DNA of 64,000 nt from Alligator mississippiensis (Eukaryota; Chordata; Crocodylia; Alligatoridae). Position 1 is the stretch's first letter, and the number at the start of each line of letters is the position of its first letter. This document shows, piece by piece, positions 23,539 to 42,051 of the stretch. The translations under genes were made by a program, and so were the position numbers. The notes under the pieces are model-generated. The model had not been told where the DNA came from. It made no database searches and saw only the letters and a program-made list of their open reading frames with translations. The stretch lies in contig NC_081831.1 of NCBI RefSeq assembly GCF_030867095.1, positions 46,499,319-46,563,318 of the forward strand, given 5' to 3'.

Positions 23539-23544
23539 CACATA
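23539..23544. other. relocated Polinton target-site duplication (CACATA)
   Basis: CACATA is the reverse complement of TATGTG at 56,663-56,668. Polintons duplicate 6 bases, so the partner of copy B's right-hand duplication now sits, inverted, beside copy A. Confidence 0.85.
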
Positions 23545-24316
23545 GTGAGGGAACTTGAGAACCAAATGGAGAAGTTCCAGGGGATCATGTTCCTGACTGG
23601 GGCAAGCTGCTGTCACCAAATCTACAGGCACTGGTGAGACAGCTGAAGAAGAGCATCAGGAGATGGCTGGATCCCTTGTGGTCCAGTACAGTCCACATGA
23701 TGGTGGGCATGTGCAACCCAAGGGTGAAGGCGAGCATGTGCATTGGCAGCACCAAACCCTTGATCACTGGACACAGGTGTTGGTCAACAGAGTCAGGGAA
23801 GCCAAAGTGCAAAGATGAGTGGATGTGGAAGACAGGGATCCACCTTCCTGTGACAGCACTCCCAGCACCAGCACCAGCCAGTCTCCTCCATGCCAGCCAC
23901 TGTCAATGTGGGCCATGGTCATGGCTTCAATGCTGAGGTCAAAATGCACCAGACCCCAGCCTCAGGCAGGTAGTGCCTTAGCTTCGGTGGCTACCTATCT
24001 TGCTGAGGATGTGCAGCCACTGGACTGTGACCCCTTGGCCTACTCATAAAGCCACAGCCAAATGTGGCAGAATCTGGCCATTGTTGCCTGGCAACACCTG
24101 TCCTCTCCACCAACCAGTGTGCTGATCAAGAGGGTGTTCAGCATTGCTGGGGATGTTGTGACATCCCACTGCACCTGCTTGGATCCTATGTTGGTGGAGC
24201 AGCTGGTGTTCCTAAAAGTGAACCTCCTGCTGAATTCTCCAAGCTCCACCTGCAGACGGACTGAGTGCCACCCTCTTCACTCTGTCGGCACCAATTTCCT
24301 TTTTTGTGTTTTTTAA
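23545..24316 (+). pseudogene. hAT transposase, C-terminal part (ZBED-like)
   Basis: Decayed frames carry the end of a hAT transposase. A VRQLKKSIRRWLDPL-like segment and a CNPRVKAS motif (compare the CDPRFK box of the family) lie at 23,640-23,730. The dimerisation domain at 24,062-24,250 reads WQNLAIVAWQHLSSPPTSVL, then KRVFSIAGDVVTSH and VEQLVFLKVNLLL, close to the usual pattern ending in FSTAG and LVFLK.N. The frame is interrupted several times (for example after 23,637 and 24,048), so it is dead. The N-terminal two-thirds lie at 56,669-58,428 on the minus strand. Confidence 0.85.
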
Positions 24317-25148
24317 AAGACAGGTATTGCCCTACTCTCAGCTGGAGGGAGCACTAACTGCATCACCAGCCAGCAGGGGAAGAACATGTCCCTGTTGAGC
24401 TCATTCCTCTGCAAGGACAAACTTGGAGGTATGGGATTGGGGCTATGGGGAAGGAGGAGGACTCAAGTCCTGGGCATGACCACTAAAGCTGCACCCTGCC
24501 AGCATAATGAGGCCTGGTGGGACTGCTGGTGGTGCGGTGCCCTCACTGGCACTGGGGCCTCTACATAACATGGTAGTGTGCCACAATGCAGGCAAGAAAG
24601 TCAGGCAGTGAAAATGAAAATGGAGGCATCATGAGGTGAGGGACAGGCTGGGTGGAGGGATGGCGGGGAAAGGGGGATGTAGCAGTGCAGGTAAAAGTGC
24701 AGAGGTGCCTGGGGAGTCAGACATTTGGTGGTTGCAGTGTGTCAGAATTCCACTGTCTAATCTATATTGAGTCCATGAGTTTCTGTACCTACTACCAACA
24801 AGGCTGATGAAGTGCAGTTCATAGGCCCAGCTCTGAAATATAGACATAAAAATACAAGATAAGCCTTCACACACCATGAGTAACATCATATATCCAACAC
24901 AACACAACATCTTTACTTCTTGCTGTCAATTGCTTTAAAAAAAGAAAGGCTCTGTGACAGTCCCATTTGGGTACCTTTGATGCTGCTGCTGATGATACTT
25001 GTGTTGGGTCAGCTAAGTTATTTTACCTGTTGTCATGTAAAGTGGTGGACCGGACATAAGGCTGTAGGGGAGGAGGAGGCCTCAGTGGGTCACGCTGCCA
25101 TGTTGTGCAGAGGCCTCAGTGCCAGGAAAGGGTGCACCTGAACATAAG

Positions 25149-25191
25149 TACACACACACACACACACACACACACACACACACACACACAC
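25149..25191. repeat. (CA)n microsatellite
   Basis: About 21 uninterrupted CA units, followed by a C-rich run, inside the 3' non-coding part of the hAT. Confidence 0.95.
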
Positions 25192-38515: not shown

Positions 38516-41500
38516 TTTCCTCCCAGTCAGCCCTGCCATAAAGGGCCAGCCTCAGGCTAGCCCCAGGACCCCAGTGTTGGGAGCCTCTCCTGGCCCAGGA
38601 CTGGGCTGGCTCCATGGCAGCCCCATCCCAGGCCATTAAAAACCTGCAGGCACTGTTAGCCTTGGGGCATATGCAGGCAGCCTGTGGCCACTGCATTCCC
38701 CTGCACAGGCTGCAGACTAACTTTGCCAGCCTGCCTGCAACCCAGCTCCAATCCCTGGTACCACAGGGCTGCACTGTCCAGCCCCACAGGATTCTGCAGG
38801 CACCTGCTGTAGCAAAAGCCCCAGTTTCTTTTTCTTTTTTTAATTTATTTATTTTAAAATGCATTCCCTCCCCTTCCCCAATCATTTCTGACTTTTTCTC
38901 TCCCTCTCTTTTCCCTATAAATAAGTATAAGTAAGCTAAGATGTAGGATAAGCTTTAAACATTTTTATTTTGCTAGCAAGTTTTTGGTTTTGGATAACCA
39001 CTGTTGTATATTGTATTCTTATTAGGCTTGTATTGATTTTTACTGTTGTATATTGTATTATTATAACTTTTGTACTGATTTTTATCGTTTCATATGGATA
39101 GTTCTCAATTCCTACTGCCTTTTCCCTGTGACTTTCTGCTGTCATTCTCTGCTTTCCTGCTGCCTCTGCCACCTTTCAGTCTCTCCTGCTGCTCTTTCTG
39201 TGATTTTTCTGCTGTCTGTCTCTCTGGTTTCAGGCTTCTCCCCCTTGCAGCTTTCCAGACCCTTCTAGCTGCTCCAGAGCCATCTTCTGGCTCCCCACAC
39301 CCATAGCCCCTCTTTAACGCACACACTTTCCCGTAGTTCCATTTTTCCCTGTCCCTATCTACCTTTTCAGCTTCTCCATAGCTCTGGCTCCAGACCCAGT
39401 CTCTGTGCAGGCATGCTTCCCTGTTCTGCAGGCTTTGGGCATTCTCTCTTAATTGATTAAGATCAGTTAACCTAAAGTTACCCCTGAGCCTCAGTTCTTC
39501 AGCCCAGGGCCCTCTAGTCTACCGGTTCTAATCCCAGTCCTGGTGACTTTCATTTCCAGTAAGTCTAACTCCCTACATTTCTACTTTCTTACCATAACCC
39601 TCTTCCAGCTATCTCAGTACACCAAGCACATGCATACCTACATATCACAACACCCAACTTAGGAACTCACCTGTTTGTGTGTGTGTGTGTGTATTCACTA
39701 ATTCACACACATACCACCCACCTACTCATACACACAGGTGAGATCTATATCTATAATCTGTGTGTGTGTGGTATATAAATTAGTAATCCACATATATGTA
39801 TTGGATGTGCAGGTACTGGTAACTGATTCTGTCTAAATTTGGTGTGTGTGTAGTGTGTATGGGCTTAAACTGGTGATAGGTGTGCATGAACCTAGACTGG
39901 TTATTTTGGACGTGTGTGTATCTGAGTTGCGAGTGGATGTCATTCTTATGCCCCAAGACAAGGCCACAGCAGTGCTATGTACTTCAGCATGGACAGCATG
40001 CCTGAGCCTCCGCTATGGCCTGGCTCCCACAATGACATGTTAACAGGGGAGGGCCCCTCAGCCCACCAGAAGCCCATCTTGAAAAGCTCCTTGCCCCTAG
40101 TCTCCTCTAACAGCTTGGGGAGCCTGGGCCAGTGCCTGCCCCACCAGCTGGCCATGTCACTGCCAGCCACCAGATCCTCCCCAGTGCCATAGACCTGCCT
40201 GGGCAGCCACACACCTTCCCCTTACAACCAAGGACATTGCCAGGAGCCTCTCATCATCACCACCAGACTGACCCAAGCTGCTGGGTATGTCATCCCCAAC
40301 CACATGGTAAGCCCCACATGAGGGAGGGTCTTCCATGCCCCAGCCCCAGCACCCTCTCTCTGCCTGGCCTGGCCAAGCTCCCCTGGCCCCTGGGCTCTCA
40401 CCTCTTCTCCCCCCCCCCCACACACACACACAGCATGCAGGGAGGCAGGAGACAGGCAACTCAAAATAGTTTTGCACTGTGTCCCTACAGCTAGGTGGGC
40501 ATGTGCCTCTCACATGCCAAGGAATGCATCAATGCCAGTGGGGATGCCCTCCTCATATGCAGGGGGCTATCAATGTGTAGCATGGTCACAGGTAGCCCTC
40601 CATACAGTGGCAGAAGTTGCAGGGCAGTGTGTACTTTCCTGCTACACCATCAAATCTCAGGGTCCTGTGCCAGGTGTGCAGGTCCACCTAGGGCACCATG
40701 AACATCATCAGCAGCAGGGCATAGTGGGTCAAGCACCCCTTGATCTGTGAAAGCAGCTCCTCATGCTGTGCTCAGGACACATGCAGCAAAGGAACACTTG
40801 GGACACAGAGTGACCATGGCAGAGGGGGGCTGGTCCTGGGGTGCCTCACCAGAGAGACCCCCTGTAGGGAAGGCAGAGGCACAGGCAACTCTGCATGCCA
40901 GTTGTCTGGAAGCCCCATGCCCCTGAGACCAGGCACCATGGTCTTGGTGGCATTACAGGAGACAGGCTGGCCTGCAGGAGAAGGGTGTGGGTCTGAAGTC
41001 ATGGCAGCGGGTGCTCCCAGCTACCCCATCCTGGATATGGGGTAGGGGAGGCAGGCTGCCTATGGCCAGCACCCAGAAGCCCACCAAGCCCTGGGGAGTG
41101 AGTGTTTATAGGATGGTTCAGCAGGTAGCTGCCTGGGCCAGGGCCTGCCTGGCTGACTTACCATAGTCTGTAGGCACCCTTATTTGCATAACCCCCAGTA
41201 CAAAGCATCTTATCACCGGATTCACAGTCAGTGCTGCCATCAGCTGGGTTTTTTGGATTCATCAGCTTGGCAGGAGGAGGACCCAGGACTGGACTGTCCT
41301 GGACTGGCTGGTCACAGCTTCAAAGGACTGGCTGGCAGACACATGGGTGTCATGTGTGGAGGATGGTGCCTGGCAGGAAGCATGGTGGACAGAAGATGTC
41401 ACCCACAAGGATGTGTAGGACCAGTGTAAGGAAGCACTGGACCAGGCAGACCAGAAATTTAGGGCACAGCTCCTGGCCCCAGAGGAACAGCATGTGGAGA

Positions 41501-42045
41501 CCCTGGATTGGCAGGCTGTGCTTGTGGCTCTAGCCTAGACTAAGTGACAGTGGCAAATGCCCAAGTGACAAGCAAATGGCAAGATCATAAGCTGCCACTA
41601 AGGACAACTGCAGCCTTTTTACGTTTCTGCTACTAATGAGTTATAGTCATTAAGTTACTGCAAAGTTTCAGGCAGTAGATAGCTAAATAGAGAGGGTCTA
41701 GCTTGTTTTAAGTTTCAGTTGTTATTTAGTATCAACAGCATTTGGTATCAAATCAAATACAAACTTGCTGCCTCACCACTGAGGGGACAAATTTTATATT
41801 CTGTAATACAGTTTTCAAGCCAATTATGTTTTTACTGTCTCACTATATATTAAATATATTTTCAAAAAATAAAACAAATAAAAACAAATAAAATAAACAA
41901 TATTTACACTTCATCTTAAAAGCTGGTCTGTATCGTTTGTTCAAAATATCTCACAAACCAAAAATTCAGAAAATATATATTTTTACACAAAAATGGTTGT
42001 TTCTTTTTCCATCATTTTTTAGAAATGTCTGGGATAATTTAAGTA
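38516..42045. other. intergenic DNA, partly GC-rich, with GT arrays
   Basis: No gene could be established. GT/CA-rich arrays lie at 39,674-39,690 and 39,757-39,860. The GC-rich stretch 39,950-41,540 has many short frames on both strands. A Trp/Glu-rich frame near 41,260-41,536 (WQEAWWTEDVT, APEEQHVETLDWQAV) has a faint Myb/SANT-associated look, but it is broken and I cannot assign it. 41,600-42,045 is AT-rich and featureless. Before the inferred inversion this AT-rich edge would have flanked copy A. Confidence 0.35.
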
Positions 42046-42051
42046 AATATG
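42046..42051. other. current left flank of copy B (AATATG), not a match to the right flank
   Basis: The six bases before the terminal repeat do not match TATGTG on the other side. If the 18.5-kb segment was inverted, this hexamer was originally the flank of copy A. Confidence 0.7.

What the first reader, a model, noticed from the sequence alone, without database searches (positions are those of the whole stretch)
23539..42051. 18.5-kb inversion recorded by two nested target-site duplications
Copy B ends at 56,662 followed by TATGTG. Its left flank is AATATG, no match, but copy A's inner end is followed by CACATA, the exact inverse of TATGTG. Independently, the hAT transposon entered by copy B is split: its 5' half ends at 59,673 beside GTGTTTAG and its 3' half ends at 25,968 beside CTAAACAC, the exact inverse. 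Transposase domains are split accordingly: BED finger and catalytic core on the minus strand at 56.7-58.4 kb, dimerisation domain on the plus strand at 24.1 kb. All of this follows if recombination between the two inverted Polintons flipped 23,539-42,051. An 8-base and a 6-base match, each beside the right terminus, are unlikely by chance together.
Basis: partly seen in the sequence, partly recalled or inferred. Interest (0 to 1): 0.9.

Follow-up and report, generated by a model that had tools for sequence, protein, structure and literature searches.

The report
Inversion between two inverted Polintons
The sequence carries clear scars of an 18.5-kb piece of what looks like an animal genome having been flipped between two facing copies of a giant virus-like transposon, a known kind of event in an unusual element, although a wrong turn by the genome assembler could leave the same scars.

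Summary
The 6-bp Polinton duplication and the 8-bp hAT duplication each have one copy near the left end of spacer 23,539-42,051 and its exact inverse beyond copy B. Rejoining the hAT halves in a script gives one frame open for 42 + 30 codons across the junction (9 + 4 and 2 + 0 in the others). Best reading: exchange between inverted Polintons A (12,702-23,538, outer end lost) and B (42,052-56,662) flipped the spacer.

New here: the arms are identical over 9,627 bp, yet differ by 4% over A's outer 905 bp (plus a 64-bp gap) and at 4 columns of the inner 305 bp. At all 4 columns (3 events) B's far repeat agrees with A's inner end. So the copies look old and homogenised, as by gene conversion. But a 9.6-kb perfect inverted repeat is also where an assembler can orient a spacer wrongly, with the same signature; no reads or relatives could be reached. 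A's own duplication cannot be checked.

The mechanism is known (Galileo inversions in Drosophila, Y palindromes, yeast flip/flop). I saw no base-level Polinton case in four paper searches that name the element. New member of a known kind; interest moderate.

The parts
12702..23538 (-). Polinton/Maverick copy A, inverted relative to B; the part matching B's outer 3.7 kb (outer TIR, integrase, 5' part of a putative capsid gene) is missing
   Evidence: aligns to the reverse complement of 42,052-52,952; B 52,953-56,154 has no blastn match of 60 bp or more at 1e-6 elsewhere in the window
13607..23233 (.). arm A of the perfectly identical tract (9,627 bp, 0 differences to arm B)
12702..13606 (.). 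diverged outer edge of A: 36 substitutions, a 1-bp indel and a 64-bp gap against B
23539..23544 (+). CACATA, inverse of B's right flank; read as the original left duplication of B, moved by the flip
23545..25968 (+). 3' half of the split hAT transposon (dimerisation domain at about 24,023-24,223; 3' end CACAGGCCTA)
25969..25976 (+). CTAAACAC, hAT 8-bp duplication, one side
23539..42051 (.). 18,513-bp spacer inferred to be inverted relative to the ancestral order
   Evidence: inference
42046..42051 (+). AATATG, flank of B's left end; read as the inverse of A's lost duplication (CATATT), not verifiable
   Evidence: A's outer end not found
42052..56662 (+). Polinton/Maverick copy B with a terminal inverted repeat at each end; PolB, ATPase-like, adenovirus-type protease and rve integrase ORFs, PolB broken by a stop
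42358..51984 (.). arm B of the perfectly identical tract
56663..56668 (+). TATGTG, right target-site duplication of B
56663..59673 (-). 5' half of the split hAT transposon (weak BED-like finger near 57,775-57,867; WNSTY-like motif; 5' end TAGGGCTCTGTG)
59674..59681 (+). GTGTTTAG, hAT 8-bp duplication, other side

Best explanation
Order of events: (1) A hAT transposon inserted (8-bp duplication CTAAACAC). (2) Polinton B inserted into it (6-bp duplication TATGTG), splitting its transposase gene. (3) A second, related Polinton, A, inserted about 18.5 kb away in the opposite orientation; its outer end was lost at some point. (4) The two inverted copies recombined with each other: exchanges without crossover homogenised about 9.6 kb of the arms, and a crossover flipped the spacer 23,539-42,051. 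The flip carried one hAT half and B's left duplication over to A's inner end. Shown: the matching inverted duplications, the hAT frame across the rejoined junction, the identical tract with diverged edges. Inferred: that the crossover happened in the genome, that the whole spacer moved as one block, the order of steps 1-3, and that conversion made the identity.
For: Flank matches and their low chance. The rejoined hAT has one frame open 42 codons before and 30 after the join; the other two are open 9+4 and 2+0. The dimerisation domain lies in the 3' half, the weak BED and WNSTY motifs in the 5' half. Both breakpoints coincide with Polinton tips, as exchange inside inserted copies must give. 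At 4 of 4 differing columns (3 events) of the inner repeats, B's right repeat agrees with A's inner end and not with B's present left end. A-B divergence falls 8.8% - 4.0% - 2.4% towards the core in three bins of my choosing and is 0 of 9,627 inside, which fits old copies homogenised by repeated exchange. The same kind of exchange is documented elsewhere (PMC2775673, PMC3723533, PMC9731477).
Against: A's own duplication is lost, so the reciprocal exchange is not shown. The uninverted order was not seen in any relative. The interior is too identical to show a chimeric breakpoint. 9.6 kb is long for one conversion tract: the P6 paper gives tens of bases to 1 kb as usual in mammals, though it infers up to 9,023 bp in that palindrome. 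The inner-repeat polarisation rests on 3 events, unequal mutation could mimic it, and B's right repeat still differs from A's inner end at 19 of 358 sites (from B's left end at 22 of 358). Frame continuity alone is weak: by my rough figure about 1 in 4 random joins stays open for 30 codons. No homologue spanning the hAT join was found.
Confidence: 0.66

Rival explanations
1. Assembly artefact: the genome still has the uninverted order (both hAT halves flank B), and the assembler walked the spacer the wrong way through a 9.6-kb perfect or collapsed inverted repeat.
For: The path ambiguity that such a repeat creates is exactly this flip, and the uninverted path would have B's and hAT's duplications in their textbook places. 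0 differences in 9,627 bp beside edges with 4% is also what a collapsed repeat copied into both places gives.
Against: If the copies really differed by about 4% inside, a modern assembler should have kept them apart (inference). A falling divergence (8.8-4.0-2.4-0%) fits repeated exchange better than one collapse boundary, but the test is modest (KS p=0.019, or 0.007 without the boundary pair) and the edge is mixed former coding sequence.
Confidence: 0.22
2. Transposase-driven flip: aberrant (hybrid-element or alternative) transposition using ends of two nearby Polintons, not homologous recombination.
For: Both breakpoints lie exactly at Polinton tips. Such events are described for other transposons (PMC2775673 section 10, part 1 of 2 read; PMC8225341, seen in a search listing only).
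Against: The hybrid-insertion model predicts two identical copies flanking the inversion. A and B differ at both edges and A is truncated. Polintons are thought to insert by integrase from a replicated copy, not by cut and paste (recalled).
Confidence: 0.05
3. Inverted duplication: A is not an independent insertion but a foldback copy of B's left part plus the adjacent hAT half, made by template switching; the original left flank of B was then deleted.
For: A lacks its outer end and carries B's duplication and a hAT half at its inner end.
Against: It needs a deletion ending exactly at B's tip (42,051/42,052), and it does not explain 2-9% divergence along A's outer edge beside 0% inside unless conversion is added.
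Confidence: 0.05
4. Coincidence: two unrelated insertions and two unrelated hAT fragments.
For: Each match alone is short.
Confidence: 0.02

Closest known systems
[quoted passage not shown] passages and part 1 of section 10 read)
   Same: Two copies of one transposon in opposite orientation at the breakpoints; duplications exchanged between them; repeats more alike between copies than within a copy (here A-inner/B-left 3 of 358, B-left/B-right 22 of 358 substitutions).
   Different: Element is a Polinton, not a P-superfamily transposon; one copy truncated, so only one duplication pair is visible; no uninverted chromosome compared; long homogenised arms, so no crossover interval can be set.
Human Y palindrome P6 arm-to-arm conversion and rare inversions (PMC3723533; abstract lines and passages read)
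   Same: Inverted arms kept near identical; inferred minimum conversion tracts up to 9,023 bp; crossovers invert the middle.
   Different: There conversion was followed through many Y chromosomes; here it is inferred from one sequence; arms are mobile elements.
Saccharomyces 24-kb flip/flop region with homogenised 4-kb inverted repeats (PMC9731477; abstract and outline read)
   Same: A similar-sized segment flips between inverted repeats homogenised within a genome.
   Different: Repeats are host genes and recurrence was shown across strains and species; here recurrence is untested.
Atlantic cod inversions, chromosome 12 breakpoints rich in Mavericks (PMC12368964; four passages read)
   Same: Maverick elements associated with vertebrate inversion breakpoints.
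   Different: A density association in the passages seen, not a base-level pair with exchanged duplications.

Membership tests
Inversion by ectopic recombination between inverted transposon copies (Galileo type) | two copies of one element in opposite orientation bounding the inverted segment exactly | tested here: met
Inversion by ectopic recombination between inverted transposon copies (Galileo type) | target-site duplications exchanged between the two copies | tested here: inconclusive
   met for B's duplication (CACATA/TATGTG); A's pair cannot be seen because its outer end was not found
Inversion by ectopic recombination between inverted transposon copies (Galileo type) | both copies chimeric | tested here: inconclusive
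   4 of 4 inner columns (3 events) fit a swapped inner end; interior identical, so no crossover point
Inversion by ectopic recombination between inverted transposon copies (Galileo type) | uninverted order in relatives or other individuals | not testable with these tools
   The genome search did not answer in 6 of 6 tries; protein database off; two viral-contig scans and one phage search gave no relative
Polinton/Maverick (copies A and B) | terminal inverted repeats with vertebrate AGTAGT//ACTACT ends | tested here: met
   met for B; A has only the inner end; end motif as quoted in PMC8097293
Polinton/Maverick (copies A and B) | 6-bp target-site duplication | tested here: met
   only after undoing the flip, and only for B; A not testable
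Polinton/Maverick (copies A and B) | PolB, rve integrase, adenovirus-type protease, packaging ATPase | tested here: met
   ORFs of B: PF03175 2.9e-31, PF00665 1.5e-10, PF00770 4.8e-6; ATPase only weak (PF02456 7.8e-4, below its cut-off)
Polinton/Maverick (copies A and B) | capsid proteins | tested here: inconclusive
   no Pfam match for ORFs 52,369-53,787, 54,181-54,678 and 53,685-54,188 of B and 12,698-13,222 of A; called capsid-like by position and recall only
hAT transposon (split element) | 8-bp duplication and hAT dimerisation domain | tested here: met
hAT transposon (split element) | short inverted ends, BED finger, full transposase core | tested here: inconclusive
   ends TAGGGCTCTGTG and TAGGCCTGTG alike by eye; BED finger 0.005, below cut-off; WNSTY stretch only 6.9 bits against Hermes
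Homogenised inverted repeat (palindrome-type conversion) | near-identical arms with diverged edges | tested here: met
Homogenised inverted repeat (palindrome-type conversion) | conversion seen as shared or mosaic variants across individuals | not testable with these tools
   one sequence only

The most novel reading that the evidence does not exclude
The two Polintons form a living flip-flop: an endogenous virus-like inverted pair whose arms keep being homogenised and whose 18.5-kb middle toggles orientation repeatedly, so both orientations segregate in the species. As far as my few paper searches show, it would be the first base-level case of giant virus-like transposons acting as inversion substrates.
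Probability: 0.2. Interest if true: 0.6.

Novelty: new member of a known kind. Interest (0 to 1): 0.4.

Why it matters
Polintons/Mavericks are large and mostly reach low copy numbers in vertebrates. [quoted passage not shown] In the listings of four searches that name the element, and in the passages I read, I saw no base-level example. If real, this locus is one: two facing copies that homogenised each other and flipped what lies between. It can be checked with a few long reads. It also shows how nested insertions in a single sequence can record the earlier order of a locus without a relative to compare.

Tried and rejected
Looked for A's missing outer end and a CATATT flank. CATATT occurs 41 times in the window against 35 expected, so the word alone says nothing. 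A search for the tip with up to 3 mismatches found only 23,518-23,538 and 56,642-56,662; it also missed B's known left tip, which carries an indel, so it is weak evidence of absence. The self-comparison (blastn, 1e-6, 60 bp or more) shows no match to B 52,953-56,154 and no terminal repeat left of 12,702.

Looked for relatives. hAT join region in viral contigs: 17 stretches matched a pattern, none confirmed. Polinton PolB part in viral contigs: none. hAT 3' half in phage records: none. The join peptide gave only a chance hit in PDB (E 0.92) and a chance DUF in Pfam (E 0.17 and 1.1). So continuity across the join rests on frame, order and motifs, not on a homologue that spans it. That the join region resembles the conserved hAT stretch after WNSTY is recalled, not from a call.

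The inverted LINE pair (8,720-10,212 and 34,207-35,682, 89% alike; called CR1-like from recall) was considered as the inversion substrate and rejected, because the breakpoints lie at the Polinton tips. A missed-adapter palindrome artefact was rejected: the arms are 18.5 kb apart around other sequence. The organism was not identified; the LINEs suggest a non-mammalian amniote (recalled).
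Full report
What is in the sequence. Two Polinton copies face each other. B spans 42,052-56,662 with a terminal repeat at each end. A spans 12,702-23,538 and has only its inner terminal repeat; the part matching B's outer 3.7 kb was not found in the window. Pfam was searched with ten proteins: eight separate ORFs of B, one of A and one hAT composite. 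B's ORFs match PolB (2.9e-31), integrase core (1.5e-10) and adenovirus-type protease (4.8e-6); one ORF weakly matches a packaging ATPase (7.8e-4) and one a chromodomain (3.9e-4), both below cut-off. The four capsid-like ORFs or pieces had no match. An in-frame stop in the PolB gene is shared by both copies.

The flanks. A's inner flank CACATA is the inverse of B's right flank TATGTG. B's own left flank AATATG fits neither: inverted, it agrees with A's flank at 4 of 6 positions, and directly with B's right flank at 4 of 6. The hAT ends carry CTAAACAC and its inverse GTGTTTAG, the only exact 8-base inverse match among shifts of 6 bases either way. Random pairs in this window match at 3.75e-4 (6-mers) and 4.05e-5 (8-mers); with +-2 freedom the latter is 5.9e-4.

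The hAT halves. Their outer ends are TAGGGCTCTGTG and, inverted, TAGGCCTGTG. The motif TGAATC/GATTCA is dense near both ends: 5 and 2 in the terminal 200 bases against 0.12 per 200 on average. It is also dense at 36.3-36.5 kb, so it is not unique to them. The 3' half has the dimerisation domain (8.7e-7). The 5' half has a BED finger below cut-off (0.005) and a WNSTY stretch that aligns with Hermes transposase at only 6.9 bits; the whole composite matches Hermes at 0.0013. Rejoined with one duplication copy, one frame is open 42 codons before and 30 after the junction, the others 9+4 and 2+0. No homologue spanning the junction could be found.

The arms. A against the reverse complement of B: 0 differences from 13,607 to 23,233 (9,627 bp). 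In the outer 905 bp there are 36 substitutions, one 1-bp indel and a 64-bp gap. In the inner 305 bp there are 4 differing columns. The outer divergence falls inward: 13 of 148, 12 of 300, 11 of 457 in bins I chose, then none (KS p=0.019, or 0.007 without the two boundary sites). At 4% uniform divergence the natural-log probability of an identical 9,627-bp tract is about -391. So either the copies are old and were homogenised, or the assembler used one sequence for both. At the 4 inner columns, which are 3 mutational events, B's right repeat agrees every time with A's inner end and never with B's present left end. This is what a swap of inner ends predicts, but 3 events are few, and the right repeat still differs from A's inner end at 19 of 358 sites and from B's left end at 22.

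Reading. Undo a flip of 23,539-42,051 and the pieces fall into place: hAT 3' half, duplication, B, duplication, hAT 5' half, with hAT's own duplication outside. Homologous exchange inside inverted copies must put both breakpoints at the element tips, as seen. Direct evidence for displacement reaches 25,976; that the rest of the spacer moved with it is inference.

The serious rival. A perfect 9.6-kb inverted repeat lets an assembler orient the middle either way. If the true order is the uninverted one, a wrong choice gives the same sequence. The graded divergence, and two homogenised but edge-diverged copies, lean towards biology, but reads are needed. I give the real flip 0.66 and the artefact 0.22.

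Known context. The Galileo inversions in D. buzzatii were recognised by the same signs: opposite copies, exchanged duplications, repeats more alike between than within copies. That paper also sets out the hybrid-insertion alternative, which predicts identical copies (PMC2775673). Here A-inner and B-left differ at 3 of 358 sites, B-left and B-right at 22 of 358. Y palindrome P6 shows inferred minimum conversion tracts up to 9,023 bp and rare inversions (PMC3723533). The yeast flip/flop is a 24-kb segment between homogenised 4-kb inverted repeats (PMC9731477, abstract). Intact vertebrate Mavericks have terminal repeats and 6-bp duplications, and ectopic recombination was suggested as a cost of high copy number (PMC8097293). 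Maverick density is raised at the breakpoints of the Atlantic cod chromosome 12 inversion (PMC12368964).

Is it in print? Of seven paper searches, four named Polinton or Maverick (13, 10, 8 and 3 papers held the terms) and three did not. I saw no base-level Polinton inversion in the listings. I opened seven papers, none of them whole: the five above and PMC12910113 and PMC8504770, whose passages mention Polintons and inversions separately. So the absence is not strong.

Verdict. Observation confirmed. Interpretation likely, not proven. Mechanism known, element unusual.

Noticed in passing
13,607-23,233 and 42,358-51,984: Polinton arms 100% identical over 9,627 bp although the edges of the same copies differ by about 1-9%: long gene conversion or collapsed assembly.
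   Followed up: yes
36,200-36,700: Cluster of TGAATC/GATTCA motifs like those at the hAT ends, next to an imperfect palindrome 36,481-36,998: possibly a related non-autonomous hAT element.
   Followed up: partly
27,244-29,258: Ends are 142-bp inverted repeats 88% alike, possibly a separate DNA transposon of about 2 kb inside the spacer.
   Followed up: partly
8,720-10,212 (-) and 34,207-35,682 (+): Two LINE copies (CR1-like by recall) about 89% identical in opposite orientation, one in the spacer with a 495-aa open frame.
   Followed up: no
56,253-56,583: B's right terminal repeat carries about 150 bp of extra tandem units (42/107-bp periods) missing from both inner repeats.
   Followed up: no
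1,299-1,464 and 62,342-62,833: Imperfect palindromes (81% and 73%), possibly miniature elements.
   Followed up: no
48,347-48,349 and mirror 17,242-17,244: The same in-frame stop in PolB in both copies, so neither copy looks intact.
   Followed up: partly
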